From NCBI GenBank assembly GCA_018402765.1, contig JAGYIE010000003.1:434001-498000 (forward strand): DNA of 64,000 nt, given 5' to 3'. The first letter of the stretch is position 1, and every line of letters begins with the position of its first letter. The position numbers were made by a program, and so were the translations under genes. The stretch is from Vicingaceae bacterium. GTDB taxonomy: Bacteria > Bacteroidota > Bacteroidia > Flavobacteriales_E > Vicingaceae. Positions 40,440-57,303 of this stretch are shown one piece after another. Below the pieces are notes generated by a model. The model was not told where the DNA came from. It ran no database searches and saw nothing but the letters and a program-made list of their open reading frames with translations.

Positions 40440-40610
40440 TTATTATAAGTTGCTCGTTACCCATATGTTAAAAAATAACTTTTTTGTAACCTATTAAACT
40501 TAAGTCAAAATCACTATTGGCGTGCCTTTGAGCAATTTTTATGGTGGATTGTAACTTTTTGTTTTAGAGGTAGGTATAGGAATTGTAAATTTTCGTAATT
40601 AAGTTTGGGT
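40440..40610 (+). repeat. Cassette A leader (copy 1)
   Basis: This is the first of six related ~170-nt leaders, the others ending at 43447, 46428, 49545, 52650 and 55773. All share the run TTAAAAAATAAC near the start, a TTGTAACTTTTTGTTTTAGAG block, and end AATTAAGTTTGGGTATG at the small-ORF start. The TAAGTTTG there matches TAnnTTTG. A CCACTAT/ATAGTGG inverted repeat is present in several copies. Here it is TCACTAT/ATGGTGG. Confidence 0.75.
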
Positions 40611-40818
40611 ATGACAAAGAGAGAAATTGACCAATTCTTTAAACCTGCCGAACATCCTTGTATGTTAGTTGGGTCTTGCTCTCTCTCTCTCTCTCTCTGC
40701 AGAATCTAGGTTTCGAGAGGTTGTTCGTTATTTATTTTATGGAAAATGTACGTTTTATTGGTGTAGCTGCTCGATTGAGAAACTATGCCTAATACATGTA
40801 ATAACCATAAAACTTTAA
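40611..40818 (+). pseudogene. Small leader ORF of cassette A, out of frame at CT tract
   Basis: Starting at ATG 40611 the frame matches the other copies (TKREIDQFFKPAEHP...). It enters a tract of ten CT units (40679-40698), where it falls out of register and stops at TAG 40707-40709 after 32 codons. The downstream part (40699-40818) is fully open in another frame. It would continue with AESRFREVVRYLFYGKC, homologous to the other copies, and would stop 2 nt before the lipoprotein ATG. Eight or eleven CT units would restore one frame. It is either a phase-off state or a disabled copy. Confidence 0.7.
40679..40698 (+). repeat. (CT)10 tract in small ORF A
   Basis: Ten CT units encode Ser-Leu repeats. 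Copies 2 and 6 with the same downstream sequence have five units. Five and ten differ by 10 nt, hence a different reading frame. Confidence 0.95.
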
Positions 40819-40820
40819 AA

Positions 40821-42224
40821 ATGAAAAAGATTAATTACATAACAATGGCTGCCTTTTCGGCAATAATGATTACTTCTTGTGAGAAGGAGGATATTATAGA
40901 GAGTGAAGATGAGAATAAACTTGTTACTTCAATTAAGTATGAACTAAATAACATTCCTTTAGATAAAATTGCAAAAGCTTCGATGATTAAAGATAAGTCA
41001 GGGAGTGATTATATTTATAATTATTCTATGCTATCATCAAATCCCGATGATGCCGATGAGGAAAAAATAAATAACTTACTCTTCAAATTAGCTGAGGCCA
41101 CAGCGCCTTTGATTAAAGATATTAATTTCAATCAATTAATACTAAATATGGTTATTAATTCTGAAACGCAATCAGCTAATTTATTAGAATTACAAACTAC
41201 AGCACCTAACTTTTATGATCAGATAAATCAAAATTTGAATGTATATGGTTTAAGTCTTCAGACGATTGCAGATAATTTAACTTATCAACCTGTTGCACCA
41301 AATATGGATTATCCAGAAACTGCCCAACCGGAATATTATGTGCCGGCTATTTTTGTTCCGAACATTGATATTGCAGATCTTTCTTATCAACCAATAATTT
41401 CACCAAATTTAGAAGTCAACGCATTAGAAGATATATTATTAGAAGACAATGTGATAGGCTGGTATTATGAAAATGAAACGGATGAGGATATAACTGAGAC
41501 GTTAGTTGATGAAGAAAGTTCTTTCAATACAACAAATCCATTATTCTTTATAGATCATGCAGTAACGACAACGCATTTAATACCTAATCCAAACGCAACT
41601 GCTTACTATGGAATAGATAGTTGTATTTATGCTGATTCTAGTAGTGGTAAATTAGCAGCAAGAAATAATTTACTTTCCAATAATTTGGCAGCAATAAGAA
41701 GTTTTAGCTCTAGAGAACATAGGATTAAAGGTGCAAATTATCAATACGAAAGTAGATGGAGTGGGAAATCTGAATTTGCTATTGTAGGGTATAGAATAGA
41801 GCCGAACGGAACTCATCATTGGGAGTACTCAGGAAGGCATGGTCATAAAGTAATCAGTAAAATTTCGCGATCTGCTGTACAGACTGCTAAAATGCAATGG
41901 AATTGGAGCCATCATTCAGATGATTGGCAACCGTTTTATAATTCATGGAACTTCCCTAATTATCCTCAGGGTGGTGTAAATTATTTTTATTGGAATACTT
42001 TTGAAAGAGACTGGAATCGAGATTTAAAAGCTCTGGGCACGGTTTCCAGAAATGGTACGACAATACATTTAAAAGGCAACATGAGGTACAGTAGTAATTG
42101 GTATGCCTGGATTCCGAATACAGTACATATTCACAATACACAATTTGTTTGGATTGACTATTATTGGTCACATTGGAATAATTCATGGAAATCAGATTTT
42201 AGACTATGGAAAGTCTTCATTTAA
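40821..42224 (+). CDS. Cassette A lipoprotein
   Basis: This 467-residue predicted lipoprotein has the leader MKKINYITMAAFSAIMITSC with the lipobox Cys at residue 20, followed by acidic residues, a Bacteroidota surface-export-like pattern. The start at 40821 is preferred to 40785 because it directly begins the signal peptide and follows the small-ORF frame by 2 nt. The N-terminal half is acidic and Asn-rich. The C-terminal 170 residues are rich in Trp, His and Tyr (e.g. HHWEYSGRHGHKV, WYAWIPNTVHIH) and are unlike the other cassettes. The function is unknown. It is paired with the barrel protein at 42276. Confidence 0.7.
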   Translation: MKKINYITMAAFSAIMITSCEKEDIIESEDENKLVTSIKYELNNIPLDKIAKASMIKDKSGSDYIYNYSMLSSNPDDADEEKINNLLFKLAEATAPLIKDINFNQLILNMVINSETQSANLLELQTTAPNFYDQINQNLNVYGLSLQTIADNLTYQPVAPNMDYPETAQPEYYVPAIFVPNIDIADLSYQPIISPNLEVNALEDILLEDNVIGWYYENETDEDITETLVDEESSFNTTNPLFFIDHAVTTTHLIPNPNATAYYGIDSCIYADSSSGKLAARNNLLSNNLAAIRSFSSREHRIKGANYQYESRWSGKSEFAIVGYRIEPNGTHHWEYSGRHGHKVISKISRSAVQTAKMQWNWSHHSDDWQPFYNSWNFPNYPQGGVNYFYWNTFERDWNRDLKALGTVSRNGTTIHLKGNMRYSSNWYAWIPNTVHIHNTQFVWIDYYWSHWNNSWKSDFRLWKVFI

Positions 42225-42275
42225 ATTCACTTGGGCGAGGATTGTATATCCTCGCCCGTAATTATAAAATTAACT

Positions 42276-42914
42276 ATGAAGTATTTAATCGTATTTTTTA
42301 TTGTTTTAGCTATGCCTTACTCAGTATTATCTCAGTCTATTTTAGGTGGTTATAATTCAACTGCTTCTGGTCATTCAATTTCGATTGACTATAATATTAA
42401 TAGAAATAAATTGGAGTTTGGTGTTGGACTTGGAATTAATCTACCAACTGAATATTTAGATCAAGGAATAAATCTATTTTACAAGAAAAAGTTATACCCA
42501 GTCAAAACTCATGAATATTTTGCATTTAAAACATATATAAACAGAAATATACTTGAAAAAACAAATTTTAACGTTTTTGTTTATTACGACTTCCAATTAA
42601 GACGTTCTGGAGCTAGATCGCAATTATATTTAAGTCTCGGTTATGACTCTACTCTTGTTAAAGATAGACCGGAAGATGGGATTATTTATCAAGAATCTAT
42701 TGTTGAATATGGTCCCTATTTCTGGTTAGAGAATACAGTAGGTGTTGGTATGGATATTTTCCTAAGTAAAAGATGTTTTTTAAGACAAAAGGTTGGTCTT
42801 GGTATAACTATGATTTACGGTTATGATGAAGGAAACCAAATAGTCAACTTTAGTGGTAGAAGTAGTATGTACGGTTTTTTGGCATACTTCGGAGTAGGAT
42901 ATAGGTTAAAATAG
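42276..42914 (+). CDS. Cassette A outer-membrane beta-barrel protein
   Basis: This 212-residue protein begins at ATG 42276, which gives a signal peptide MKYLIVFFIVLAMPYSVLSQ. An upstream ATG at 42231 would add 15 residues before it. The mature part alternates hydrophobic and polar residues with many Tyr, Phe and Gly, as in small OMP_b-brl porin-like proteins. It ends LAYFGVGYRLK. It takes the second-gene position that T9SS-sorted proteins hold in cassettes B-E. No specific function is recognised. Confidence 0.6.
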   Translation: MKYLIVFFIVLAMPYSVLSQSILGGYNSTASGHSISIDYNINRNKLEFGVGLGINLPTEYLDQGINLFYKKKLYPVKTHEYFAFKTYINRNILEKTNFNVFVYYDFQLRRSGARSQLYLSLGYDSTLVKDRPEDGIIYQESIVEYGPYFWLENTVGVGMDIFLSKRCFLRQKVGLGITMIYGYDEGNQIVNFSGRSSMYGFLAYFGVGYRLK

Positions 42915-43065
42915 TATTGTTTAATTTTCTTTATCTATTAAATATATTATGCCACTATTCTAAGATAAATATAGCTTAATTTCTATAGATGCTATTATCA
43001 AACTAAGTAAAAAGCTTATAGATAAAAATAAAAGAGTTTTTCCCAAATTGAGCTTTAGAAGGGTG

Positions 43066-43215
43066 GTTTCTATCACAGGCCAGTTGGTGCTAGAAGGCCG
43101 TTTGAATGATAGTAAAACTATAAATGTAGGCGCTCTAAAAACAGGTACTTACTTTTTGCAGCTAGAAAGTCAGCGCGCAGCTACTTATCGGGCCAATGTG
43201 TTTATGAAGGAATAG
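43066..43215 (+). pseudogene. Remnant of a T9SS type A sorting domain
   Basis: An open segment without a start encodes RRVVSITGQLVLEGRLNDSK and then TINVGALKTGTYFLQLES, ending FMKE and TAG. This is the C-terminal part of a type A sorting domain. The bases are richer in G and C than the neighbourhood. Upstream sequence (VFPKLSF) resembles a decayed FPNP motif. It appears to be the tail of a lost exported-protein gene, followed by the cassette terminator at 43234. Confidence 0.65.
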
Positions 43216-43233
43216 AAATGTATTGCTTTCCAA

Positions 43234-43271
43234 AACTCCCTTTAGCTATTTCAGCTAAAGGGAGTTTTTTT
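43234..43271 (+). terminator. Terminator closing cassette A
   Basis: A perfect 14-bp stem (43234-43247 with 43253-43266) is followed by a T run. Confidence 0.9.
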
Positions 43272-43447: not shown

Positions 43448-43645
43448 ATGAAAAAGAGAGAAATTGAACAGTTCTTTATACCAACCGAGCACCCATGTTC
43501 GATAGTTGAGTATTGCTCTCTCTCTGCAGAATATAGGTTTCGAGAGGTTATTCATCATTTGTTTTATGGAAAATGTACGTTTTATTGGTGTAGCTGCTCG
43601 ATTGAGAAACTATGCCTAATACATGTAATAACCATAAAACTTTAA
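43448..43645 (+). CDS. Small leader protein of cassette B
   Basis: This 65-residue ORF begins KKREIEQFFIPTEHPCSIVE, crosses a (CT)5 tract (43516-43525, CSLS) and continues EYRFREVIHHLFYGKCTFYW. It is homologous to five other copies. The differences between copies are partly synonymous and the pattern R-[FL]-[RK]-E...G-[KR]...T-x-Y is kept, so it is likely translated. The stop (43643-43645) is 2 nt before the lipoprotein ATG at 43648, pointing to translational coupling. No known family is recognised. It is basic, and Cys- and aromatic-rich. Confidence 0.6.
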   Translation: MKKREIEQFFIPTEHPCSIVEYCSLSAEYRFREVIHHLFYGKCTFYWCSCSIEKLCLIHVITIKL

Positions 43646-43647: not shown

Positions 43648-44667
43648 ATGAAAAAGATTAATTACATAACAATGGCTGCTATGGCAGCAATACTAATTAC
43701 TTCTTGTGAAAAAGAAGAGAATATGGCTATTAATACTGAAAATGGTCAAAATAGTAAATCAGGATTAGCTAATTCCAATAAAAGTGAAGAGGTTAATGTT
43801 GAAGATATTTTTACTTTTATTGATGCAGTTAGCGATGATGGGATTACAGTTGCTGCTACTGTCGCAGAAGATGCAATGCTTTATACTGAAGCAGCACTAA
43901 ATTGGAGACTAACTAATACGGATAAAATACCTTCTTCAAGTTATGTCGGTAATACCGAAATTAACGTCACAGTGTCAGAGTATGGAGGTGCGTTACAAAT
44001 AAATAGTTCTGATATTGAAAACATGAATTCAGATTTGTACAACCACATATACAACGTTGCAGATACGTTAACGTTACCTGATTTAGGTGACGGTAAATAT
44101 ATATCTGTAATTGACTTAAACTGGGAGGAATTGATAGAAGGTTCAAATACAATAACTGTTCAGTTTGTAATTAATAATTCAGTATCTAGTGCACCAAGTT
44201 GTAATGTAACCGATTATTGGAAACCAATTTTCAATATGGGCGGGTGTAATAATAATACGGCTACAACTAGTGATGCAGGAAAGGAAATAAATACCCGTGT
44301 AAATATGGAGATTTGTAATTCTTATATCAACAATTGTACAAGTCCAATTTGGTTTAATATGCAGACTACGGCAGCTATCAATCCATTTGTGAACCCTCAA
44401 TATTCTAATAATATTTGGAATGACAATAAATATATTTTTGTTTGTTTATCTGACACTTATATCAATGCATTGAAAACTAGTTGTATTAATATTGGCAATC
44501 AAGTGGTAAATACTTCAATTTACAATAAAATAAAAACAATAGTTGTTGGTGAGACTATTATTCCATCAGTATCTACTCCAGCTTATTCCCATAATTACAC
44601 CTATTTCTCAGGTCGTTGTATTGATTATCCTGCAATATCTAAGCCTCAACCTTGTTTTGGATGTTAA
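43648..44667 (+). CDS. Cassette B lipoprotein
   Basis: This 339-residue lipoprotein has the leader MKKINYITMAAMAAILITSC, Cys20, then EKEE. The start at 43648 is preferred over 43612. It is a distant paralog of the lipoproteins in cassettes C-E. Shared landmarks are EDAMLYTEAALNWRL (EDAVLFTEAALNVQL in C-E), the GGC...N-rich segment, DAGKEINTRVNMEICNS (DAAKEVSMRIQNGNCNS in C-E) and several conserved Cys. The C-terminal ~100 residues are cassette-specific and end in CFGC. The function is unknown. It is exported to the envelope or cell surface. Confidence 0.7.
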   Translation: MKKINYITMAAMAAILITSCEKEENMAINTENGQNSKSGLANSNKSEEVNVEDIFTFIDAVSDDGITVAATVAEDAMLYTEAALNWRLTNTDKIPSSSYVGNTEINVTVSEYGGALQINSSDIENMNSDLYNHIYNVADTLTLPDLGDGKYISVIDLNWEELIEGSNTITVQFVINNSVSSAPSCNVTDYWKPIFNMGGCNNNTATTSDAGKEINTRVNMEICNSYINNCTSPIWFNMQTTAAINPFVNPQYSNNIWNDNKYIFVCLSDTYINALKTSCINIGNQVVNTSIYNKIKTIVVGETIIPSVSTPAYSHNYTYFSGRCIDYPAISKPQPCFGC

Positions 44668-44684: not shown

Positions 44685-46190
44685 ATGAAATACATTTTAT
44701 TAATCATCACCTCAATGCTCTTTAGTATTGAGGTGATTTCACAACAATTTCAGTTTAAGTTAGACAAATCGGTCGAGAATGAACTATTTGATGTTATTGA
44801 AACGGACTCTACGTATGAGTTCGTAGGAACTCAATTTACCTTATCAAATAGAAGGCCTTATACAATGAGCATGTCTAAATCAGGTGCTATTTTAAATGAT
44901 TCAATTTTCAATTACACTGATAGGTCAACTTTTGGAGGAATAGCTAACAGTAAAAATTATCAAATTAAAGTTTCATCTACTTTGCCAACTCCTCTTTTGT
45001 CAGGAAAGAATAGTGAGCTATATTTTAATTCTGTAAATGGGTTAAATAACGATTTCACGATTCAATTTGCTGATACAACGAAACAGTTATTAATTGAGAA
45101 TTTAAAAGTTCTTAATGATACCTTATTGTTTGCAATGGGATTTTATGCAGATACAGCTAGATTTAGAAATGCTTTCATGTGGATAATCAATCTAAATGAT
45201 ACCTCACAACAGTTTATCGACTTTTCTTCAAATCAAATATCACTAGTAGGCTTTGTATCAGATATTATTTCTTATAAAAATAAATTTATCGCTTCTACTT
45301 ACGGTGTACTTGATGGTGATCCGAATGATTGGGGTGGTTCTGCTGAAATTGTCTTATTAAATCAAAGTTTTCAAATGGACACCGTATTTAATATTTCCTT
45401 TTCGCAAAATACATTTAATCGTAATTTCGTTGGTTTTTTTACGAGTCTAGCCCAATTAGATGATAACCACTTTATGATAGCTTCAAAAGCGGCAAATTCC
45501 CGAGGAATATCTCATGCAAAGCCTGATGATATGGTTAGTATTGTATTAGACTCTAATTTTAATGAAGTAGCTTTAAATTTCTATGGACTGAGAGATTCTT
45601 CTGCAGAGCAGGCCAATCAATGTCTTTCTAGATTTGAGGGCGACCCTTACGTTTACATTGGAGGAACTGAAAACTATAAAGTTGATTTTTCCGGCTACCC
45701 TTCAGATACTACACTATTTATACTTACCAAGGCGGACTTAATGGGCAATGAAATATGGACCCGTTATTATAGTAACAATACCAATTTGTTTATGCGGAAA
45801 GTATTGGCAACATCAGATGGTGGAGCACTTATGGTCGGTTGGTCGTATGATCCTGCAGGCCCTGATGGTTTTGAGAAGGATGTTTGGATTGTAAAAGTAG
45901 ATAGTAATGGTAATTATTTACCTACGAGTATTAAAGAACAACAAATTTCGAACAGTGACTTCAATTTTTATCCGAACCCTTTAAAGAATGAGCTGCATTT
46001 TAGACAAATTAATACCCTCAGAAATTATCAGTTTGAGCTATTCGATGTTTCAGGCAGAAAAGTCGCAGAAGAACAATTGATAAATAGTGATGAAACAATT
46101 AATACCAGTCATCTAAAAAGTGGAGCATATATTTATCATTTGATGGATCAGAATGGAAATTATGCTACTGGAAAACTTATAAAAGAATAG
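44685..46190 (+). CDS. Cassette B T9SS-sorted exported protein
   Basis: This 501-residue protein (from ATG 44685; the ATG at 44652 would overlap the lipoprotein gene and precede the signal peptide) has a signal peptide ending in EVISQQ. A beta-propeller-like body contains repeated strand motifs such as ILTKADLMGNEIWTRYYS and LATSDGGALMVGWSYD. A C-terminal type A sorting domain starts FNFYPNPLKNELHF and ends YATGKLIKE. It is exported by the type IX system and probably surface-attached. It is paired with the upstream lipoprotein with a 17-nt gap. Confidence 0.82.
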   Translation: MKYILLIITSMLFSIEVISQQFQFKLDKSVENELFDVIETDSTYEFVGTQFTLSNRRPYTMSMSKSGAILNDSIFNYTDRSTFGGIANSKNYQIKVSSTLPTPLLSGKNSELYFNSVNGLNNDFTIQFADTTKQLLIENLKVLNDTLLFAMGFYADTARFRNAFMWIINLNDTSQQFIDFSSNQISLVGFVSDIISYKNKFIASTYGVLDGDPNDWGGSAEIVLLNQSFQMDTVFNISFSQNTFNRNFVGFFTSLAQLDDNHFMIASKAANSRGISHAKPDDMVSIVLDSNFNEVALNFYGLRDSSAEQANQCLSRFEGDPYVYIGGTENYKVDFSGYPSDTTLFILTKADLMGNEIWTRYYSNNTNLFMRKVLATSDGGALMVGWSYDPAGPDGFEKDVWIVKVDSNGNYLPTSIKEQQISNSDFNFYPNPLKNELHFRQINTLRNYQFELFDVSGRKVAEEQLINSDETINTSHLKSGAYIYHLMDQNGNYATGKLIKE

Positions 46191-46213: not shown

Positions 46214-46252
46214 AACTCCCTTTAGCTGAACTGCTAAAGGGAGTTTTTTTTT
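46214..46252 (+). terminator. Terminator closing cassette B
   Basis: A 13-bp stem (46214-46226 with 46233-46245) and 6-nt loop are followed by nine Ts. Confidence 0.9.
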
Positions 46253-46254: not shown

Positions 46255-47515
46255 TTTTATTATAAGTTGCTCGTTACCAAAATGTTAAAAAATAACTTTT
46301 TTGTAATCCATTAAATTTGAGTCAAAACCACTATTGGCGTAGCTTTGAGCAATTTTTTATTGCGGATTGTAACTTTTTGTTTTAGAGGCAGGTATAGGAA
46401 TTGTAAATTTTCGTAATTAAGTTTGGGTATGAAAAAGAGAGAAATTGACCAATTCTTTAAACCTGCCGAACATCCTTTTATGTTAGTTGGGTATTGCTCT
46501 CTCTCTCTCTCTCTACGCGAGCAGCGATTAAAGGAATTCATGCGTCTATGGTTTAAAGGCAGAGGAACCATTTATAGGCGGGATTTAAATAAGGAATACC
46601 ATTTTAATTATTTTTAATTTAAATCAAACGAAAATGTTTAAAACAAGAATAGTAACTGCATTTGCAGTATGTGCCATGCTATTTACAGCATGTGAGAAAG
46701 ACCAAGTAATCACACCTGATAACTCCATAACGACTTCAACTAAGTCCGCTATTGGGAATGGGGATAAATCAACCAATATAATTCCAGGATTACAAGAGTT
46801 TGTTGATGATTTGGTAAAAAACAACGATACACCTGACGACCTGTCTTTAGAAGATGCTGTATTATTTACAGAGGCGGCATTGAATGTGCAACTTGCAAAT
46901 ACAGCAGGAGATTTAGTAACAACGGACTCTTTGTATATTGTATCATCTACTTTAAATACCAATGCTATTTATGAGTCAGGACTAGTTTCAGGAACGGAGA
47001 TCTATGATTTCTACAATGATATAAAGTCTCAAATTATGACCATTGGAAACAATAACTTCTCATCTGGTGATGTAGAGGTAGCTTCTGTTGATATTTCTTA
47101 CGGCGAGCACTTTGATAAGTCTGCTGTTAAAGTTTTGATTAAATTCGGTCGAGGAGGAGTTCCTGCTATCTGTGATTGGGATGGTGATTATAAGGCTGCG
47201 TTAAGGCAAGGAGGCTGCGGAACAAATCCCGGGCAGAAACAAAATACAGATGCTGCAAAAGAAGTTAGTATGCGAATTCAAAATGGGAATTGTAATTCTC
47301 CGCTTGTCAGATGTGGCTTTGTGTTTGACTTAACTACCTATCCTGATCCTATCGCCTCTGGGGCGAGTTATTGGAATACAGAGTTGTATAACGTTTCGCC
47401 AATTGGGAACGTTTCGTGCATATCAGAGTTGGGACAAGTACAATGGTATAACCGAATGGAAAATTATATTTCTTTTAATTATCCATACCCCAACGCTAAA
47501 GGCAGACAGGTGGAT
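46255..47515 (+). repeat. Repeat block, copy 1 (leader, small ORF, lipoprotein 5' part of cassette C)
   Basis: This block is nearly identical at DNA level to 49370-50633 and 52475-53737. It runs from the leader through the small ORF and the first ~290 codons of the lipoprotein. The identity includes third codon positions, indicating recent duplication or gene conversion. Differences cluster toward the 3' end. Confidence 0.9.
46429..46617 (+). CDS. Small leader protein of cassette C
   Basis: This 62-residue ORF begins at ATG 46429 with KKREIDQFFKPAEHPFMLVG, crosses a (CT)9 tract (46497-46514) encoding SLSLSL and continues REQRLKEFMRLWFKGRGTIY. The 5' half resembles copies A, B and F at DNA level. 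The 3' half is diverged in DNA but keeps the protein pattern (R, hydrophobic, basic, E ... F, G, T, Y). It ends 16 nt before the lipoprotein ATG at 46634. It is basic and of unknown function. Confidence 0.6.
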   Translation: MKKREIDQFFKPAEHPFMLVGYCSLSLSLREQRLKEFMRLWFKGRGTIYRRDLNKEYHFNYF

Positions 47516-47650
47516 TGTATAAATTCATGGTTGCAAGTAAGAATTAGGTATGTTAACGCAATAAATAGCAATGTATATGTAAATAATATGCATCAATTTA
47601 CTGATTGTACCTTTATTAATGATATCGGTATTAATAAACCAATGTTCTAA
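46634..47650 (+). CDS. Cassette C lipoprotein
   Basis: This 338-residue lipoprotein has the leader MFKTRIVTAFAVCAMLFTAC with Cys20 and EKDQ after it. About 230 residues are identical to the D and E lipoproteins. Landmarks are LEDAVLFTEAALNVQLANTA, a GGC segment and DAAKEVSMRIQNGNCNS. The variable window comes after KGRQVD and reads CINSWLQVRIRYVNAINSNV here. It then returns to the shared tail HQFTDCTFINDIGINKPMF. The function is unknown. A role as a surface partner of the T9SS protein 11 nt downstream is inferred. Confidence 0.72.
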   Translation: MFKTRIVTAFAVCAMLFTACEKDQVITPDNSITTSTKSAIGNGDKSTNIIPGLQEFVDDLVKNNDTPDDLSLEDAVLFTEAALNVQLANTAGDLVTTDSLYIVSSTLNTNAIYESGLVSGTEIYDFYNDIKSQIMTIGNNNFSSGDVEVASVDISYGEHFDKSAVKVLIKFGRGGVPAICDWDGDYKAALRQGGCGTNPGQKQNTDAAKEVSMRIQNGNCNSPLVRCGFVFDLTTYPDPIASGASYWNTELYNVSPIGNVSCISELGQVQWYNRMENYISFNYPYPNAKGRQVDCINSWLQVRIRYVNAINSNVYVNNMHQFTDCTFINDIGINKPMF

Positions 47651-47661: not shown

Positions 47662-49203
47662 ATGAAAAATTACAAATCACTGATTGTATTATTTTTCATT
47701 TTGATTGGGCTGAATCTTTCAGCCCAATCATTTGAAAGGTATATTAAACACAATTATTCAGAACAAGGTATTATTGACCCAATAGAATTTAGTTCAGGAG
47801 ATTTTGTAGTAGGAAGTATCTTTCCATATACAGAATCTGCAAATGATTATTCGGAAAGCATGCTTTATCAGATGAACTCCAATGGTATTTTGATAGATAG
47901 TGTTTATCTCCCATTTGGGATTCAAAAACTATTTTTAGAGAATAGCTCCTTGATGGGGATAGGCAATCGATTTAATCCAAGTGACACAACAACCCAGCAA
48001 TTACTTTTTAAGTTTAGACCAAATTCTATAGATACTTTATTTACACGAAAATTAAATCGTTCAGACTCTTTATATTTCTCGTCTTATATTAACTTTGTAG
48101 ATTATTGTAACTGTTATACTGAAGTTGGAGCAAAGTATGATACTGCTTTTAATTCATCTCCTTACGTTCGTCAATTTGACTCCAATTTTACTGTTCTTAA
48201 TTATAAGGAATATAGTTCTCCATACAGTCCACAAGTTGCCTTTCCTCTATTTTACAGTTTTTTAGAGCGAACGGATGAAAATGGAATCGTTATCATAGGA
48301 AGTAATTTAGACAGTTTTAATACTATTTATGATCAATTTCTTGCTGTACTTACTTTTTTAGATAGTAATTTAAATAGGGATAGATTAAAACAACCAATTC
48401 AATTATCTACATCAATTCCGCTCAGTGGAGGAGCTTCTGCATATTTAGATCAAGTAGTACATGGAGTTGGTCTGAATGATTCTACCTATTTATTTGCAGG
48501 TAGCGGAATCTCTAAAGGACATTTTATTTTTGGAGAACAAGATATTGGTTTGATTAAAACCGACACTACCTTTAATTATATGTCATCTCTGTTTTATGGG
48601 CTTAGTGATACGGCAGATTTTCCTGCACCTAACTTAATTAGTAAGACTTTAAATGGAATTTATATTTACTCAACTGCAAATCTAGACCCATTAGGGTCTT
48701 CGGAATGGTTTATAAATCTTACTAAACTTGATAATGATGGAAATATCTCGTGGAGTAAATTGTACAAAAAGGGAACAAGGCTATCTGCTAGAGGAGTGCT
48801 TGCAACCTCAGATGGGGGTGCACTCATGATTGCAAATGAAATCGATTTAAACAAACCAACACAACCTGTAAGTGGGCCTGCTGATTCTGATATTTACATC
48901 CTAAAAGTAGATAGCAACGGCAATCAAACTTCGGTAGGTATAGCAGAAGGTACTGCCATACCAGAGAATAACTTTCTATTTTATCCTAACCCAGTAGAAG
49001 ATCAATTAACCATTCGAAAAGTAAATCAGTTTGGTAATTATCAGTTACTACTGTTTGATAGCTTCGGAAAGCAGGTACTCAATTATAATTGGGTAAACGA
49101 TCAAGCTCAATTAAATTTGAGTCATCTAAAGTCAGGTATTTATGTTTATCTTCTTGTAGATGAAAAAGGAAGATCAGCAGGCGGTAAGTTGCTGAAGATG
49201 TAG
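47662..49203 (+). CDS. Cassette C T9SS-sorted exported protein
   Basis: This 513-residue protein has a signal peptide MKNYKSLIVLFFILIGLNLS ending AQ. A beta-propeller-like body contains LERTDENGIVIIGSNLDSF and LATSDGGALMIANEID. The C-terminal type A sorting domain begins FLFYPNPVEDQLTIRK and ends AGGKLLKM. The first ~80 residues are nearly identical to the D protein. The middle (about 80-420) is clearly diverged, including a Cys pair in VDYCNCYTEVG that is conserved in C, D and E. It is secreted via the type IX system. The ligand is unknown. Confidence 0.82.
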   Translation: MKNYKSLIVLFFILIGLNLSAQSFERYIKHNYSEQGIIDPIEFSSGDFVVGSIFPYTESANDYSESMLYQMNSNGILIDSVYLPFGIQKLFLENSSLMGIGNRFNPSDTTTQQLLFKFRPNSIDTLFTRKLNRSDSLYFSSYINFVDYCNCYTEVGAKYDTAFNSSPYVRQFDSNFTVLNYKEYSSPYSPQVAFPLFYSFLERTDENGIVIIGSNLDSFNTIYDQFLAVLTFLDSNLNRDRLKQPIQLSTSIPLSGGASAYLDQVVHGVGLNDSTYLFAGSGISKGHFIFGEQDIGLIKTDTTFNYMSSLFYGLSDTADFPAPNLISKTLNGIYIYSTANLDPLGSSEWFINLTKLDNDGNISWSKLYKKGTRLSARGVLATSDGGALMIANEIDLNKPTQPVSGPADSDIYILKVDSNGNQTSVGIAEGTAIPENNFLFYPNPVEDQLTIRKVNQFGNYQLLLFDSFGKQVLNYNWVNDQAQLNLSHLKSGIYVYLLVDEKGRSAGGKLLKM

Positions 49204-49332: not shown

Positions 49333-49369
49333 ATTCCCTTCACCTAAATTGGTGAAAGGAGTTTTTTTT
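49333..49369 (+). terminator. Terminator closing cassette C
   Basis: The stem with core CCTTCACC/GGTGAAAGG (49333-49345 with 49352-49363) and loop TAAATT is followed by eight Ts. Confidence 0.85.
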
Positions 49370-49750: not shown

Positions 49751-50758
49751 ATGTTTAAAACAAGAATAGTAACTGCATTTGCAGTATGTGCCATGCTATT
49801 TACAGCATGTGAGAAAGACCAAGTAATCACACCTGATAACTCCATAACGACTTCAACTAAGTCCGCTATTGGGAATGGGGATAAATCAACCAATATAATT
49901 CCAGGATTACAAGAGTTTGTTGATGATTTGGTAAAAAACAACGATACACCTGACGACCTGTCTTTAGAAGATGCTGTATTATTTACAGAGGCGGCATTGA
50001 ATGTGCAACTTGCAAATACAGCAGGAGATTTAGTAACAACGGACTCTTTGTATATTGTATCATCTACTTTAAATACCAATGCTATTTATGAGTCAGGACT
50101 AGTTTCAGGAACGGAGATCTATGATTTCTACAATGATATAAAGTCTCAAATTATGACCATTGGAAACAATAACTTCTCATCTGGTGATGTAGAGGTAGCT
50201 TCTGTTGATATTTCTTACGGCGAGCACTTTGATAAGTCTGCTGTTAAAGTTTTGATTAAATTCGGTCGAGGAGGAGTTCCTGCTATCTGTGATTGGGATG
50301 GTGATTATAAGGCTGCGTTAAGGCAAGGAGGCTGCGGAACAAATCCCGGGCAGAAACAAAATACAGATGCTGCAAAAGAAGTTAGTATGCGAATTCAAAA
50401 TGGGAATTGTAATTCTCCGCTTGTCAGATGTGGCTTTGTGTTTAACTTAACTACTTATCCTGATCCTATAGCCTCTGGGGCGAGTTATTGGAATACAGAG
50501 TTGTATAACGTTTCGCCAATGGGTAATGTAGCATGTATTTCAGAGCTGGGACAAGTACAATGGTATAACCGAATGGAAAATTATATTTCTTTTAATTATC
50601 CATACCCCAACGCTAAAGGCAGACAGGTGGATGTAATTAATTCATGGTTACAGGTACTAATAAATCCTAGAGACTTTAAGGTATATGTAAATAATATGCA
50701 TCAATTTACTGATTGTACCTTTATTAATGATATCGGTATTAATAAACCAATGTTCTAA
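49751..50758 (+). CDS. Cassette D lipoprotein
   Basis: This 335-residue lipoprotein with Cys20 is identical to the C copy up to CGFVF. There Asp becomes Asn (NLTTYPDP), and a few changes (PMGNVACIS) follow. After KGRQVD the variable window reads VINSWLQVLINPRDFKV, shorter than in C and E. The shared tail YVNNMHQFTDCTFIND then resumes. It is exported to the envelope, with function unknown. It lies 11 nt upstream of its T9SS partner. Confidence 0.72.
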   Translation: MFKTRIVTAFAVCAMLFTACEKDQVITPDNSITTSTKSAIGNGDKSTNIIPGLQEFVDDLVKNNDTPDDLSLEDAVLFTEAALNVQLANTAGDLVTTDSLYIVSSTLNTNAIYESGLVSGTEIYDFYNDIKSQIMTIGNNNFSSGDVEVASVDISYGEHFDKSAVKVLIKFGRGGVPAICDWDGDYKAALRQGGCGTNPGQKQNTDAAKEVSMRIQNGNCNSPLVRCGFVFNLTTYPDPIASGASYWNTELYNVSPMGNVACISELGQVQWYNRMENYISFNYPYPNAKGRQVDVINSWLQVLINPRDFKVYVNNMHQFTDCTFINDIGINKPMF

Positions 50759-50769: not shown

Positions 50770-52308
50770 ATGAAAAATTATAAATCGCTGATTGTATTAT
50801 TTTTCATCTTGATTGGGCTGAATCTTTCAGCCCAATCATTTGAAAGGTATATTAAACACAATTATTCAGAACAAGGTATTATTGACCCAATAGAATTTAG
50901 TTCAGGAGATTTTGTAGTAGGAAGTATCTTTCCATATACAGAGTCTGCAAATGATTATTCGGAAAGCATGCTTTATCGGATGAACTCCAATGGTATTCTA
51001 ATAGATAGTGTTTACTTACCTTTTGGGATTCAAAAATTGTTATTGGTTAATAACTCCTTAATTGGTGTAGGCAACCGATTTAATTCAAGCGACACCACCA
51101 CTCAACAGTTACTTTTTAAGTTTTACCCTAATTCGATTGATACCTTGTACACACGAAGTCTTAACCGTTCTGATTCACTATACGATTCTAGATATGTTGA
51201 TTTCGTTGATTATTGTAATTGTTATACAGAAATAGGTTTTAAGTCTGACACATCTTTTAAGCCAGTACCTTATGTTCGGCAATTTGACTCCAGTTTGACG
51301 GTATTAAATTACAAAGAGTTTACCTCAGTTTATGGATCTCAGTTAAGTTTTCCTTATTTAGATAGTTTTTTAGAGCGAACAGATGAGGATGGTATCGTTA
51401 TAATAGGTAGCAACCTAGATAGTTTTAATATCAATTATGACCAATATCCTGCTGTACTTTACTTTTTAGATGCAAATTTAAACCGTGATACAACTAAACA
51501 ACCCATTCAACTTATTACATCAATACCTATTTCAGGTGGCGTCAATGCACATTTACAAAGCTTAGTTCATTCAACAAGATTAAATGACTCTACTTACTTA
51601 TTTTCTGGTAGTGGTATTTCTCGAGGGCACTTTGTTTTTGGAGATCAAGATATTGGATTAATAAAAACTGACACCGCCTTTAATTATATTTCAGCTCAGT
51701 TTTATGGGCTTCGAGATACAATTGATTCACCTGCACCTAATTTTTTGAGTAGAACAGGAAGCGGCTTTTTTCTATTTTCAACTACCAATATCGATATATT
51801 TGGATCAGATTGGTATTTAAATCTAACAAAGCTGGATAACAATGGAAATATTATATGGAGTAAATTGTACAAAAAAGGAACACGACTTTATGCTAGAGGA
51901 GTTCTTGCAACTTCAGATGGTGGTGTCCTTATGATTGCAAATGAATTCGATTTTAATAAACCAACGCAACCCGTTAGTGGTCCCGGCGATTTAGATATTT
52001 ACATCCTAAAAGTAGATAGCAACGGCAATCAAACTTCGGTAGGTATAGCAGAAGGTACTGCCATACCAGAGAATAACTTTCTATTTTATCCTAACCCAGT
52101 AGAAGATCAATTAACCATTCGAAAAGTGAATCAGTTTGGTAATTACCAACTTTTCCTTTTTGATAGCTTCGGTAAGCAAGTACTCAATTATAATTGGGTA
52201 AACGATCAAGCTCAATTAAATTTGAGTCATCTAAAGTCAGGTATTTATGTTTATCTTCTTGTAGATGAAAAAGGAAGATCAGCAGGCGGTAAGTTGCTGA
52301 AGATGTAG
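50770..52308 (+). CDS. Cassette D T9SS-sorted exported protein
   Basis: This 512-residue paralog of the cassette C protein has an identical signal peptide and near-identical first ~80 residues. The middle is diverged throughout, including synonymous sites (e.g. VDYCNCYTEIGFKSDTSFKP). The C-terminal sorting domain starting FLFYPNPVEDQLTIRK is again nearly identical. The body keeps the propeller-like strand motif LATSDGGVLMIANEFD. Type IX export with surface attachment is expected. The function is unknown. Confidence 0.82.
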   Translation: MKNYKSLIVLFFILIGLNLSAQSFERYIKHNYSEQGIIDPIEFSSGDFVVGSIFPYTESANDYSESMLYRMNSNGILIDSVYLPFGIQKLLLVNNSLIGVGNRFNSSDTTTQQLLFKFYPNSIDTLYTRSLNRSDSLYDSRYVDFVDYCNCYTEIGFKSDTSFKPVPYVRQFDSSLTVLNYKEFTSVYGSQLSFPYLDSFLERTDEDGIVIIGSNLDSFNINYDQYPAVLYFLDANLNRDTTKQPIQLITSIPISGGVNAHLQSLVHSTRLNDSTYLFSGSGISRGHFVFGDQDIGLIKTDTAFNYISAQFYGLRDTIDSPAPNFLSRTGSGFFLFSTTNIDIFGSDWYLNLTKLDNNGNIIWSKLYKKGTRLYARGVLATSDGGVLMIANEFDFNKPTQPVSGPGDLDIYILKVDSNGNQTSVGIAEGTAIPENNFLFYPNPVEDQLTIRKVNQFGNYQLFLFDSFGKQVLNYNWVNDQAQLNLSHLKSGIYVYLLVDEKGRSAGGKLLKM

Positions 52309-52436: not shown

Positions 52437-52474
52437 AATTCCCTTCACCTAAATTGGTGAAAGGAGTTTTTTTT
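52437..52474 (+). terminator. Terminator closing cassette D
   Basis: It is the same hairpin as at 49333: a CCTTCACC/GGTGAAAGG core with a following T run. Confidence 0.85.
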
Positions 52475-52650: not shown

Positions 52651-52839
52651 ATGAAAAAGAGAGAAATTGACCAATTCTTTAAACCTGCCGAACATCCTTT
52701 TATGTTAGTTGGGTGTTGCTCTCTCTCTCTCTCTCTACGCGAGCAGCGATTAAAGGAATTCATGCGTCTATGGTTTAAAGGAAGAGGAACCATTTATAGG
52801 CGGGATTTAAATAAGGAATACCATTTTAATTATTTTTAA
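52651..52839 (+). CDS. Small leader protein of cassette E
   Basis: This 62-residue ORF is identical to the cassette D copy, with a (CT)9 tract at 52719-52736 in frame. The stop is 16 nt before the lipoprotein ATG at 52856. Confidence 0.6.
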   Translation: MKKREIDQFFKPAEHPFMLVGCCSLSLSLREQRLKEFMRLWFKGRGTIYRRDLNKEYHFNYF

Positions 52840-52855: not shown

Positions 52856-53884
52856 ATGTTTAAAACAAGAATAGTAACTGCATTTGCAGTATGTGCCATG
52901 CTATTTACAGCATGTGAGAAAGACCAAGTAATCACACCTGATAACTCCATAACGACTTCAACTAAGTCCGCTATTGGGAATGGGGATAAATCAACCAATA
53001 TAATTCCAGGATTACAAGAGTTTGTTGATGATTTGGTAAAAAACAACGATACACCTGACGACCTGTCTTTAGAAGATGCTGTATTATTTACAGAGGCGGC
53101 ATTGAATGTGCAACTTGCAAATACAGCAGGAGATTTAGTAACAACGGACTCTTTGTATATTGTATCATCTACTTTAAATACCAATGCTATTTATGAGTCA
53201 GGACTAGTTTCAGGAACGGAGATCTATGATTTCTACAATGATATAAAGTCTCAAATTATGACCATTGGAAACAATAACTTCTCATCTGGTGATGTAGAGG
53301 TAGCTTCTGTTGATATTTCTTACGGCGAGCACTTTGATAAGTCTGCTGTTAAAGTTTTGATTAAATTCGGTCGAGGAGGAGTTCCTGCTATCTGTGATTG
53401 GGATGGTGATTATAAGGCTGCGTTAAGGCAAGGAGGCTGCGGAACAAATCCCGGGCAGAAACAAAATACAGATGCTGCAAAAGAAGTTAGTATGCGAATT
53501 CAAAATGGGAATTGTAATTCTCCGCTTGTCAGATGTGGCTTTGTGTTTGACTTAACTACCTATCCTGATCCTATCGCCTCTGGGGCGAGTTATTGGAATA
53601 CAGAGTTGTATAACGTTTCGCCAATTGGTAACGTTTCGTGCATATCAGAGTTGGGACAAGTACAATGGTATAACCGAATGGAAAATTATATTTCTTTTAA
53701 TTATCCATACCCTAACGCTAAAGGCAGACAGGTGGATGTAGTTAACTCTTGGTTACAAACAATGTTCCGCTTAGTTCAAACAAGACAAGGTTCTTATTCA
53801 ACATTTATTTATACTAATAATTTACATCAATTTACTGATTGTACGTTTATCAACGATGTAGGAATTGATAAGCCAATGTTCTAA
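52856..53884 (+). CDS. Cassette E lipoprotein
   Basis: This 342-residue lipoprotein with Cys20 is identical to the C copy for about 290 residues (DLTTYPDP, PIGNVSCIS). The variable window after KGRQVD reads VVNSWLQTMFRLVQTRQGSY, the longest of the three. It continues TNNLHQFTDCTFINDVGIDK before the end PMF. The tail also shows two conservative changes against C and D. It has the same envelope localisation and unknown function. It lies 10 nt upstream of its T9SS partner. Confidence 0.72.
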   Translation: MFKTRIVTAFAVCAMLFTACEKDQVITPDNSITTSTKSAIGNGDKSTNIIPGLQEFVDDLVKNNDTPDDLSLEDAVLFTEAALNVQLANTAGDLVTTDSLYIVSSTLNTNAIYESGLVSGTEIYDFYNDIKSQIMTIGNNNFSSGDVEVASVDISYGEHFDKSAVKVLIKFGRGGVPAICDWDGDYKAALRQGGCGTNPGQKQNTDAAKEVSMRIQNGNCNSPLVRCGFVFDLTTYPDPIASGASYWNTELYNVSPIGNVSCISELGQVQWYNRMENYISFNYPYPNAKGRQVDVVNSWLQTMFRLVQTRQGSYSTFIYTNNLHQFTDCTFINDVGIDKPMF

Positions 53885-53894: not shown

Positions 53895-55430
53895 ATGAAA
53901 AATTATAAATCGCTGATTGTATTATTTTTCATCTTGATTGGGCTGAATCTTTCAGCCCAATCATTTGAAAAAAGAATAGACAGAACCCTCTCTGAGAGCA
54001 CAAATGGACTAGCAATCGAATTACTTAACGGGAATTTTATATTTACTTCATCTTTACCAAATTCCGGAAGTTATTATGGAGGTTTTAGTGAGTCTATATT
54101 TTATCTGATAGACTCGAACGGCTTATTTAAGGATAGTATTTACTTACCTTTTAGTAGTGGGGCATTTGTTATGATTGACAGTGTCATATATGGTTCAGGA
54201 ACAAGGTATGATTCCTCTGATACTACATTTACTCCAATATTATATAAAATTAATCCATTTACTTTAGATACACTAGAGGTAAGTTATTTAAGTAGTTCTG
54301 ACTCAACTTTATCTTCTACTACAATCAAAAAAGTTGTCTACTGTAATTGTTTCACAGAGGTTGGAGTCAAGGCTGATACTGGATCTAATCTTACTCCATA
54401 CGTTAGGCAATTCGACTCTAACTTAGCAGTACTTAATTATAAAGAGTTTTCATCGGTATACGGTCCTCAAAGCTACTTTCCAAATATTTATAGTTTTTTA
54501 GAACGAACAGATAAAAATGGAATAGCTTTAATAGGCAGCAATTTGGATAGTTTTAATACACTTTATGATCAGTTTCCTGTGATGATTACCTTCTTAGATG
54601 GTAACCTTAATAGGGACAGCCTAAGGCAACCTATTCAATTAACCAGTGCCTCAATTATTAGCGGAGGAGTTAAGGCTTATTTATCAACCGCCAACTATAT
54701 TAGTTTAAGTGATTCTACCTATTTGTTTGCAGGAAATGCAATTTCAAAAGGGCATTTTTTATGGGGGGAAAGTGATATAGGCCTTTTAAAAATGGATACT
54801 GCATTTAATTTATTATCTTCAACTTTTTATGGTCTTGTTGATACTTTGGATGGGGCACCAATAGGAATGATTGATAAAATGGACGACTTTATTTATGTTC
54901 TTAATACCACTAACATCAACTTTCTTTCAAATTGGTATTTAAGTTTAACTCGTCTTGATAAAAATGGAAATGTGATTTGGAATAAGTTTTATAAAGATGG
55001 TAAAAAATATGAAGCTAAAGGCATTTTAACAACAGCAGATGGTGGTGCTTTAATTCTCGCTGATATGTTTGACATTAACAAACCTAACCAACCAAGTTCA
55101 GGTATGGGCGATTTAGATATCTACATTCTTAAAGTAGATAGCAACGGCAATCAAACTTCGGTAGGTATAGCAGAAGGTAATGCCATACCAGAGAATAACT
55201 TTCTATTTTATCCTAATCCAGTAGAAGATCAATTAACCATTCGAAAAGTGAATCAGTTTGGTAATTACCAACTTTTCCTTTTTGATAGCTTCGGTAAGCA
55301 AGTACTCAATTATAATTGGGTAAACGATCAAGCTCAATTAAATTTGAGTCATCTAAAGTCAGGTATTTATGTTTATCTTCTTGTAGATGAAAAAGGAAGA
55401 TCAGCAGGCGGTAAGTTGCTGAAGATGTAG
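53895..55430 (+). CDS. Cassette E T9SS-sorted exported protein
   Basis: This 511-residue protein has the signal peptide shared with C and D. Divergence starts directly after SFEK (RIDRTLSESTNGLAIELLNG), so the N-terminal 80 residues conserved in C and D are also replaced here. The middle keeps family landmarks (YCNCFTEVG, LERTDKNGIALIGSNLDSF). The last ~90 residues, with FLFYPNPVEDQLTIRK, are again almost identical to C and D. It is the most divergent member of the tandem set. It is exported by the type IX system. Confidence 0.82.
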   Translation: MKNYKSLIVLFFILIGLNLSAQSFEKRIDRTLSESTNGLAIELLNGNFIFTSSLPNSGSYYGGFSESIFYLIDSNGLFKDSIYLPFSSGAFVMIDSVIYGSGTRYDSSDTTFTPILYKINPFTLDTLEVSYLSSSDSTLSSTTIKKVVYCNCFTEVGVKADTGSNLTPYVRQFDSNLAVLNYKEFSSVYGPQSYFPNIYSFLERTDKNGIALIGSNLDSFNTLYDQFPVMITFLDGNLNRDSLRQPIQLTSASIISGGVKAYLSTANYISLSDSTYLFAGNAISKGHFLWGESDIGLLKMDTAFNLLSSTFYGLVDTLDGAPIGMIDKMDDFIYVLNTTNINFLSNWYLSLTRLDKNGNVIWNKFYKDGKKYEAKGILTTADGGALILADMFDINKPNQPSSGMGDLDIYILKVDSNGNQTSVGIAEGNAIPENNFLFYPNPVEDQLTIRKVNQFGNYQLFLFDSFGKQVLNYNWVNDQAQLNLSHLKSGIYVYLLVDEKGRSAGGKLLKM

Positions 55431-55640
55431 TTCAATATTAGAAATATGTCCAGTTAACTTTTAAAACGTACACGAATTTGTGCTAGTTTACTTATGAAGG
55501 TAATTATATCTTAGCTAATCTTTTTATGAAAGAGTAAAGCAAATTTATTTTTAAATGTAATTCCCTTCACCTAAATTGGTGAAAGGAGTTTTTTTTGTTC
55601 TTACCGTAAGTTTCTGTTTATCCAAATGTTAAAAAATAAC
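55125..55640 (+). repeat. Partial repeat block, copy 4 (end of cassette E)
   Basis: It is nearly identical to 48890-49405 and 51998-52510 through the sorting domain, spacer and terminator. Identity breaks down just after AAATGTTAAAAAATAACTTT, where the cassette F leader is diverged. Confidence 0.85.
55559..55597 (+). terminator. Terminator closing cassette E
   Basis: The CCTTCACC/GGTGAAAGG stem and T run are the same as in cassettes C and D. Confidence 0.85.
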
Positions 55641-55773: not shown

Positions 55774-55923
55774 ATGAAAAAGAGAGAAATTGAACAGTTC
55801 TTTATACCAACCGAGCACCCATGTTCGATAGTTGAGTATTTCTCTCTCTCTGCCAAATCTAGGTTTCGAAAGATAATTCACTATTTATTTTATGGAAAAT
55901 GTAAGTTTTATTGGCGTAGTTAA
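55774..55923 (+). CDS. Small leader protein of cassette F
   Basis: This 49-residue ORF begins KKREIEQFFIPTEHPCSIVE, has an in-frame (CT)5 tract (55842-55851), then KSRFRKIIHYLFYGKCKFYW, and ends RS. Compared with cassette B it has several amino-acid changes and several synonymous ones but no frame change. It ends 50 nt before the lipoprotein ATG at 55974 because a TAA replaces the continuation seen in B. Confidence 0.58.
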   Translation: MKKREIEQFFIPTEHPCSIVEYFSLSAKSRFRKIIHYLFYGKCKFYWRS

Positions 55924-55973
55924 TCGATTGAAAAACGCTTACCGAATACATTTATAGACATAAACTAGAAAGA

Positions 55974-56462
55974 ATGAATAAGATAAAATACATAACAATG
56001 GCTGCCATGGCAGCAATAATGATTACTTCTTGTGAAAAGGGAGTAGGATTGAATTCAGAGCAAATGACTCTTAATAGTAATTCAGAAGTAAAAGCTAACA
56101 CGAATTTTACAACTGATAAGTCGGCAGAAATCATGACCTACACTATTAATAGAGAGAATATTGAAAAAGAAATCTTAACTATAACAGATGAAACATTTAA
56201 TTCTGCCTTTTTATCAGAATACCCAAACGCATGGTTAACAATAAACCCTACTGACAGTTCAAATCAGGTAACCTTTAACATCATGCCTAACGGAGATGAT
56301 GATGGAAATCCAATTATTACAGATCCTAATACAGTTGTCTGTTCAGGTGGAGGATACTCTTTTGTTTCTTGTGTAAGTGATTGGTTCGATTTAAATCCTG
56401 ATGGTTGTTTAGTGATAACTCAAAGTGGCGGCTCATTCTCCGCGAATGATGAAGGCTGTTAG
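55974..56462 (+). CDS. Cassette F small lipoprotein
   Basis: This 162-residue lipoprotein has the leader MNKIKYITMAAMAAIMITSC with Cys20, closely resembling the A and B leaders. The mature part is short, rich in Asn, Thr and Asp, and has four Cys in its last 50 residues (VVCSGGG, VSCVSD, DGCLVI, DEGC). It lacks the long homologous body of B-E. The function is unknown. A terminator separates it from the barrel gene at 56593. Confidence 0.65.
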   Translation: MNKIKYITMAAMAAIMITSCEKGVGLNSEQMTLNSNSEVKANTNFTTDKSAEIMTYTINRENIEKEILTITDETFNSAFLSEYPNAWLTINPTDSSNQVTFNIMPNGDDDGNPIITDPNTVVCSGGGYSFVSCVSDWFDLNPDGCLVITQSGGSFSANDEGC

Positions 56463-56523
56463 GATATTGAAAAGTTAAATTTCATCGTTTTTGGGCGATT
56501 AAACTAATTTTAAACTCTATTAA

Positions 56524-56559
56524 AACTCCCTTTAGCTATTCAGTTAAATGGAGTTTTTT
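56524..56559 (+). terminator. Terminator after cassette F lipoprotein
   Basis: An imperfect AACTCCCTTTAGCT / AGTTAAATGGAGTT stem is followed by a T run. It is a diverged member of the same hairpin type. Confidence 0.75.
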
Positions 56560-56592
56560 AGATAGTGTATATTTGATAAAATAGCGATTTAT

Positions 56593-57296
56593 ATGAGAAA
56601 CTTACTATTGATTATTCTAATTTGCATCTCTCAGTTTTCTTTTAGCCAAAATAAGTTCATCATTGGTAATTTACAAGTCAATAATCTACTAGATAACAGT
56701 ACTTTTCCATCAGAAGTTGGTTTTCAGTTTCACACTAGAGTATCATTGGGTGCACAGATACCTTTGTATTACGATATAGAAAAGGAACAAGAAGTCTTTT
56801 CGTTAGAGCTTGGCGTCGGTACTTATATGACTTCCATGTATTTTAAAAATTCAATACTTGATAATCCAAGAAGTCAGGGAAGTGGAGGTGTTATAAGTGG
56901 TTTCTTCTTTAAAGCTGAACCGAGTGTCAATATTTATCAGAATAAAAAGAGAACCATCTTTTTACATGCTAGTTTAAATAATGTACTGCATATTATGCCC
57001 AATTCAGAAACAATGAGTGGATTCACTCGAAAAGATTCAAGTACAATAGTATTATTACCAACGTTAATTCTAATGCATTGCAATACGCTATTGAACCTTA
57101 TTTAGGTGTAAGCTATTTATGGAAGTTCAAAAAAAGCAGTAATGGACTACTTTTTCGGGTAAAAAGAGGGTTTGTATTTCATGAACAATCAATCGCAGTT
57201 ATGCGCATTTCTGATACTAATGAAACTACTAACATTAAATTTAACAATAACAATTGGACATTATCAATAGCTTATTTGCTGCGAAAAAATCAATAA
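56593..57296 (+). pseudogene. Outer-membrane beta-barrel protein with a frameshift
   Basis: The first frame (56593-57105) has a signal peptide MRNLLLIILICISQFSFSQ and barrel-like sequence up to SSTIVLLPT, then runs into unrelated sequence. The second frame (to 57296) resumes with NSNALQYAIEPYLGVSYLW and ends SIAYLLRKNQ, a typical barrel C-terminus. The frameshift lies at about 57058-57075. Apart from this the gene is intact and about 230 residues long. It parallels the barrel gene of cassette A by position, though the two are not clearly homologous. Confidence 0.7.
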
Positions 57297-57303
57297 AACT
57301 TTT

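What the first reader, a model, noticed from the sequence alone, without database searches (positions are those of the whole stretch)
40440..57300. Array of six cassettes: CT-tract small ORF, lipoprotein, exported T9SS or barrel protein
Six consecutive units share the same plan: related leader, small ORF of about 49-65 codons with a CT tract, lipoprotein with Cys at residue 20, then a T9SS-sorted propeller-like protein (B-E) or an outer-membrane barrel (A, and a separately terminated frameshifted one in F). Hairpin terminators bound each unit. The lipoprotein leaders fall into two classes (MKKINYITM-type in A, B, F; MFKTRIVTA-type in C-E), but all follow the same leader and small ORF. The order and spacing are visible in the sequence. 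That it works as one system of surface variation is inference. I do not recognise it as described.
Basis: partly seen in the sequence, partly recalled or inferred. Interest (0 to 1): 0.82.

Follow-up and report, generated by a model that had tools for sequence, protein, structure and literature searches.

The report
Repeat-gated leader peptides before surface proteins
Six tandem surface-protein operons each begin with a tiny gene whose reading frame is set by a slippery DNA repeat, and the same small-peptide switch (with different repeats) turns up in other genera and one other family, which points to a random on/off control of surface proteins not described before in these bacteria.

Summary
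The six units are real. Each starts with a leader ORF whose two halves are joined by a (CT)5-10 tract, followed by a Cys-20 lipoprotein and a T9SS-sorted protein (B-E) or a barrel (A, F). The genome's only GCTCTCTCTCTCT tracts are four of these. The part after the tract encodes a conserved peptide, consensus R-[YF]-L-F-[KY]-G-[RK]-x-[TS]-F-[YW]-(W), with codon-level evidence of coding. A search for the lipoprotein in the same family (46 genomes) found relatives in five genera. Most lie just downstream of a leader ending in the same peptide, but the repeat differs: CT, ACTC, CTAC, CTAT or ACTACAG. An independent peptide-profile search found the same design with (CA)10-14 in a second family, before unrelated exported proteins. 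Two members that lost the repeat read straight through in frame. A relative in Acidiluteibacter ferrifornacis has (CT)8 inside the lipoprotein ORF itself. Best explanation: slipped-strand phase variation of a regulatory leader peptide controlling a cassette of surface proteins. The closest known mechanism is the Streptococcus gallolyticus pil1 leader, but no intrinsic terminator lies between repeat and gene here. Frame logic and conservation are shown. Switching, and how the peptide acts on the next gene, are inferred.

The parts
40395..40431 (+). terminator-like hairpin before unit A
40611..40709 (+). unit A leader ORF as read from its ATG: out of frame, stops soon after the tract (OFF)
40679..40698 (+). 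unit A (CT)10 tract
40699..40818 (+). unit A conserved second half of leader (AESRFREVVRYLFYGKCTFYW...), frame different from its ATG
40821..42224 (+). unit A lipoprotein (Cys20)
42276..42914 (+). unit A outer-membrane barrel-like protein (weak TDE1717 match)
43048..43215 (+). T9SS sorting-domain remnant at the end of unit A
   Evidence: by similarity of its tail to the L140 and L045 partners
43232..43268 (+). terminator-like hairpin before unit B (read by eye)
43448..43645 (+). unit B leader ORF, in frame through the motif, stop 2 nt before the lipoprotein ATG (ON)
43516..43525 (+). unit B (CT)5 tract
43648..44667 (+). unit B lipoprotein
44685..46190 (+). unit B T9SS type A sorted protein
46214..46245 (+). 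terminator-like hairpin before unit C
46429..46617 (+). unit C leader ORF (ON)
46497..46514 (+). unit C (CT)9 tract
46634..47650 (+). unit C lipoprotein
47662..49203 (+). unit C T9SS type A sorted protein
49339..49356 (+). terminator-like hairpin before unit D
49546..49734 (+). unit D leader ORF (ON), (CT)9 at 49614-49631
49751..50758 (+). unit D lipoprotein
50770..52308 (+). unit D T9SS protein
52444..52461 (+). terminator-like hairpin before unit E
52651..52839 (+). unit E leader ORF (ON), (CT)9 at 52719-52736
52856..53884 (+). unit E lipoprotein
53895..55430 (+). unit E T9SS type A sorted protein
55566..55583 (+). terminator-like hairpin before unit F
55774..55923 (+). unit F leader ORF (ON), (CT)5 at 55842-55851
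55974..56462 (+). unit F short lipoprotein
56593..57296 (+). unit F exported barrel-like protein, split by a frameshift near 57078-57105

Best explanation
Each unit is a phase-variable (contingency) operon for a surface lipoprotein and its partner. The first gene is a regulatory leader ORF in two coding halves joined by a simple sequence repeat whose unit is not a multiple of three. Slipped-strand mispairing adds or removes repeat copies and so sets whether a ribosome that starts at the leader ATG reads the conserved end ([LF]-[KY]-G-[RK]-x-[TS]-F-[YW]-(W)) or an unrelated frame with another stop. Reading the conserved end is proposed to raise, reading elsewhere to lower, expression of the lipoprotein and the T9SS or barrel protein; the direction is inferred. 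In A and B the conserved end starts a long hairpin that ends about 8 nt before the lipoprotein ATG. The out-of-frame ribosome of A stops before this hairpin, while the in-frame ribosome of B ends 2 nt before the ATG, so there the effect may be opening of the start site. In other genomes the peptide ends about 50-200 nt before the gene, so a nascent-peptide effect on the ribosome is more likely there than simple proximity. Six independently switching copies with different mature proteins would give one genome many surface states. Shown: anatomy, frame logic, peptide-level conservation, replacement of the repeat unit, occurrence in two families. Inferred: switching, sign of control, mechanism of coupling.
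For: Same design in other genera with different repeats: G007 (CT)8, (CT)5, (CT)9 and (CTAT)6; G009 (ACTC)3, 3, 4 and (CT)6; G004 (CTAC)8-9; G016 (ACTACAG)3. Second family, (CA)10, 11, 11, 13, 14, before exported two-gene operons where the downstream DNA is held. After the repeat the motif frame has 0 stops in 21 sequences (14 and 17 stops in the other frames), an excess of third-position changes (26 of 47, p 0.0016, disjoint pairs) and mean BLOSUM 1.93 against 0.02 and 0.37. Leader state among 19 repeat-bearing copies with a clear start is 7 in frame and 12 out, about what random switching gives. The two copies that lost the repeat (G007:C44a, G001:C19:231k) are both in frame. A. ferrifornacis has a lipoprotein of this family with (CT)8 inside its own N-terminus, currently frameshifted. 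11 of 12 dinucleotide repeats in 251 kb sit in these leaders or at a lipoprotein start. A Bacteroidota-type TAnnTTTG box lies within 60 nt before 9 of 19 leader starts, 1.5 expected. T9SS sorting domain in the partners of B-E and in 9 of 10 partner genes tested elsewhere. Hairpin z -3.6 and -4.9 in A and B. Precedent: GCAGA repeats in the S. gallolyticus pil1 leader peptide (PMC3894217).
Against: No reads, strains or RNA data were available, so tract-length variation within one population is not shown. Tract lengths in assemblies are consensus values; tract A could be a sequencing error. The hairpin near the start codon is strong only in A, B and two G009 units, and no intrinsic terminator lies between tract and gene in the window. 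An in-frame share near one third is also what unlinked halves would give. First halves differ between genera, and third-position excess there is weak. Some copies were found with a protein profile, which favours peptide-conserved ones.
Confidence: 0.72

Rival explanations
1. The repeat acts as a length-variable 5' untranslated element (promoter or ribosome-site spacing, or a target for a protein or small RNA), without translation of the leader.
For: Length-dependent control by repeats outside coding sequence is known (for example the H. pylori tlpB leader G-repeat, PMC8295292). The post-tract RNA folds onto the start region in A, B and G009.
Against: Post-tract sequence evolves as protein in one frame only; an ATG and a first half conserved within each genus are present; repeat-less copies are open in frame; hairpins are not general.
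Confidence: 0.14
2. The leader repeat is mainly a recombination site: identical ends and tracts allow unequal crossing-over and gene conversion that shuffle cassettes behind a fixed expression site; frame effects are incidental.
For: A is a chimera with its junction at the tract. C-E have near-identical leaders and lipoprotein N-termini but divergent T9SS middles. Loci that look orthologous by their neighbours carry different cargo behind a leader (own C10:222k against A. ferrifornacis C19:231k; own C10:88k against C19:365k).
Against: Does not explain why the peptide after the tract is conserved across families or why repeat units are replaced by others of non-multiple-of-three length. It may act in addition to phase variation.
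Confidence: 0.1
3. The tract is a neutral microsatellite and the leader a passively duplicated repeat with no function.
For: C-E are recent duplicates and the own genome holds a decayed copy (C10:88k).
Against: Conserved position and peptide in several genera and a second family with different repeat units; codon-level constraint.
Confidence: 0.04

Closest known systems
Streptococcus gallolyticus pil1 (and pil3) leader-peptide phase variation, PMC3894217
   Same: Simple repeats (GCAGA) inside a leader-peptide ORF set its frame and length, and so the expression of a downstream surface-structure operon.
   Different: Unrelated phylum and sequence. There the long leader opens an intrinsic terminator; none is found here between tract and gene. 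Here the leader ends in a conserved peptide, repeat units vary, and copies form arrays with lipoprotein and T9SS cargo.
Classical SSR contingency loci (Haemophilus, Neisseria, Campylobacter; review PMC11868660)
   Same: Non-triplet repeats that change the reading frame near the 5' end of surface genes.
   Different: The repeat lies in a separate upstream ORF, not in the surface gene, except in the A. ferrifornacis C22 relative.
Bacteroides invertase-driven phase variation of capsules and SusC/D (review PMC11868660)
   Same: Phase variation of the Bacteroidota cell surface.
   Different: DNA inversion, not repeat slippage.
Regulatory nascent peptides (TnaC, Erm leaders), from general knowledge
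   Same: Variable N-terminal part, conserved short C-terminal part, upstream of the regulated gene.
   Different: No stalling shown and no sequence match known; here the peptide is gated by a repeat.
T9SS type A cargo (TIGR04183)
   Same: Partner proteins of B-E carry the sorting domain.
   Different: Mature domains match no Pfam family; weak PDB match to CylK over profile positions 248-425.

Membership tests
SSR contingency locus | non-triplet simple repeat inside an ORF so that copy number sets the frame | tested here: met
SSR contingency locus | repeat number varies between cells or strains | not testable with these tools
   no reads and no second strain; only paralogues (10, 5, 9, 9, 9, 5) and related loci differ
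pil1-type leader attenuation | repeat lies in a leader ORF upstream of a surface operon | tested here: met
pil1-type leader attenuation | intrinsic terminator between leader repeat and first gene | tested here: not met
   no + strand terminator-like site between a tract and its lipoprotein ATG
regulatory nascent (arrest) peptide | conserved C-terminal peptide under amino-acid level selection | tested here: met
regulatory nascent (arrest) peptide | ribosome stalling | not testable with these tools
   needs toeprinting
T9SS type A cargo (partners B-E) | TIGR04183/PF18962 C-terminal domain above cut-off | tested here: met
   (B, C and E scanned; D is 82% identical to C with the same tail)
TDE1717 barrel (partner A) | NF049866 score above cut-off (135 bits) | tested here: not met
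   27.5 bits; resemblance only

The most novel reading that the evidence does not exclude
A previously unnamed family of regulatory nascent peptides (consensus [LF][KY]G[RK]x[TS]F[YW](W)) exists across Bacteroidota families. It acts on the translating ribosome to control the next gene, and lineages have repeatedly gated it with whatever simple repeat is at hand (CT, CA, ACTC, CTAC, CTAT, ACTACAG), so that a peptide-based switch is itself turned on and off at random.
Probability: 0.35. Interest if true: 0.87.

Novelty: new variant of a known kind. Interest (0 to 1): 0.73.

Why it matters
Repeat-driven phase variation is well studied in a few pathogens, while the Bacteroidota cases I know of or found are mostly DNA inversions. 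Here Bacteroidota appear to run arrays of T9SS and lipoprotein surface genes from repeat-gated leader peptides, with a conserved peptide that matched no family in the libraries searched. It gives a direct handle, countable repeat lengths, on surface heterogeneity in these bacteria, and a new small peptide whose action on expression can be tested with simple reporters.

Tried and rejected
Genome-wide DNA pattern over 84,980 species: besides A. ferrifornacis, two hits, both inside genes on the other strand, judged chance. Motif-profile hits G008, G308, G373, G379, G155, G421, G278, G056 and G348 have no repeat and mostly lie in coding sequence of another frame: chance. Weak family hits L024-L026: chance. 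Lipoprotein-profile hits outside the family at E above 1e-6, mostly signal-peptide matches, were not pursued. Rfam: nothing at gathering threshold; the MIR319 match is the terminator hairpin. AlphaFold models of the T9SS protein (pLDDT 46) and lipoprotein (32) are too poor to search with, so no fold search was made. PADLOC: no defence proteins. Diversifying selection on the T9SS middle domains: dN/dS 0.15-0.27, not supported.
Full report
OBSERVATION. The window is C10:434001-498000 of a 3.1 Mb genome in 16 contigs. A second genome of the same genus, G001, is Acidiluteibacter ferrifornacis, since its contig C19 has the length and motif of NZ_WWNE01000006. The six units at 40.4-57.3 kb are present as described. 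Each has a leader ORF with a CT tract, a lipoprotein with Cys at residue 20, and then a T9SS type A protein (B-E, TIGR04183 and PF18962 above cut-off) or a barrel-like protein (A; F, frameshifted). Terminator-like hairpins separate the units. GCTCTCTCTCTCT occurs four times in the genome, always here and on the same strand, with no reversed-control match.

THE TRACT IS A FRAME SWITCH. From the leader ATGs the (CT)5 of B and F and the (CT)9 of C-E lead into the conserved downstream frame; in A, (CT)10 shifts the frame and the ORF ends within a few codons of the tract. In B the in-frame stop lies 2 nt before the lipoprotein ATG, in C-E 16 nt.

CONSERVED PEPTIDE. The two leader types (A, B, F and C-E) are only about 50% identical in DNA after the tract but align as peptides, and a further copy stands at C10:222k before an exported metalloprotease-like gene. 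A. ferrifornacis has a copy with (CT)5 before a T9SS protein; the lipoprotein there appears to be reduced to a 34-codon ORF. A decayed copy lies at C10:88k of the own genome.

OTHER GENERA. A lipoprotein profile, made without regard to the leader, found relatives in the same family. Upstream of most of them is a leader that ends in the same peptide, but with other repeats: G007 (CT)8, (CT)5, (CTAT)6; G009 (ACTC)3, 3, 4; G004 (CTAC)8-9; G016 (ACTACAG)3. G007 and G009 carry tandem units. Partner genes carry the T9SS sorting domain in 9 of 10 tested. In A. ferrifornacis C22 a lipoprotein of this family has (CT)8 within its own first codons and is now out of frame, a classical phase-variation arrangement. 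One weaker relative, G000:C9, has neither repeat nor motif.

INDEPENDENT SEARCH. A profile of the peptide alone, run on 395 genomes of the class, recovered the same loci, further leaders before other lipoproteins (G007 C44 and C27, G009 C15 near the listed lipoprotein), and a hit in a different family, G141. G141 has (CA)14. Its relatives G105 and G172 have (CA)10-13 leaders, M..TKVIEFMYSIFKA-(CA)n-...RCFLYGRCTFW*; in the copies whose downstream DNA is held, an exported protein and a second gene follow. None of these cargo proteins has a Pfam match above cut-off. Nine other hits were judged chance.

CODING TEST. In 21 post-repeat sequences the motif frame has no stop, the other frames have 14 and 17 stops; third-position changes are in excess in disjoint pairs (26 of 47, p 0.0016); BLOSUM means are 1.93, 0.02 and 0.37. 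Several of these sequences were found through the lipoprotein, not through the peptide, which limits search bias. Of 19 repeat-bearing copies with a clear ATG, 7 are in frame. Both copies without a repeat are in frame. With two cases this is only suggestive.

RNA. From motif to lipoprotein start, A and B fold into strong hairpins (z -3.6, -4.9); G009 u1 and u2 are next (-3.1, -2.3), most others are not significant. Masking the motif region raises predicted accessibility of the start by 0.20 on average, but not in the second family. No Rfam family and no intrinsic terminator explain the leaders. Start-site opening may therefore act in some units but cannot be general.

ARRAY EVOLUTION. C-E share leader, lipoprotein codons 1-231 and T9SS tail almost exactly, whereas T9SS middles differ (dS 1-1.9, dN/dS 0.15-0.27), and the lipoprotein varies only in C-terminal patches. 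This indicates gene conversion or cassette exchange at the ends. A joins a C-type first half to a B-type second half at the tract.

INTERPRETATION. The best reading is a phase-variable regulatory leader peptide. The nearest precedent is S. gallolyticus pil1 (PMC3894217), which shares the logic but not the terminator, sequence or conserved peptide. Literature searches in the held open-access library found no description of repeat-gated leaders in Bacteroidota; subscription journals are largely missing from it, so absence is weak evidence. Confidence: about 0.85 that the repeat sets the leader frame with functional effect, about 0.72 for phase variation of the downstream operon through the leader, about 0.35 that a nascent-peptide effect is the means.

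Noticed in passing
L140 (G001:C22), lipoprotein upstream of 7472, minus strand: A. ferrifornacis lipoprotein of this family with (CT)8 inside its own N-terminal codons, currently frameshifted; followed by a T9SS protein.
   Followed up: partly
L145-L153 (G105, G141, G172): A different family has multiple (CA)n leaders with the same terminal peptide before exported two-gene operons without clear Pfam match; several contigs end in or near the tract, as if it broke the assembly.
   Followed up: partly
L094 6287-7980, L093 8295-8990, L138 2022-2720: A roughly 231-aa protein starting MK[IV]HIYRP lies near leader copies at several loci; own C10:88k and A. ferrifornacis C19:365k look like the same site by their neighbours, with different cargo.
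   Followed up: partly
L090 5702-7318: In G009 a T9SS protein begins with the leader's first half (MLTKPLATISPKSEKSTHLTK), as if leader and cargo had fused.
   Followed up: no
window 47400-47600 and 47745-48930 (and D, E equivalents): Variable lipoprotein patches and the T9SS middle domain vary together between C, D and E against identical flanks, which could mean cognate pairing.
   Followed up: partly
leaders, 11-26 nt before the start codon: TAnnTTTG promoter-like box just before 9 of 19 leader starts (1.5 expected), so the leader may sit at the very start of the transcript.
   Followed up: partly
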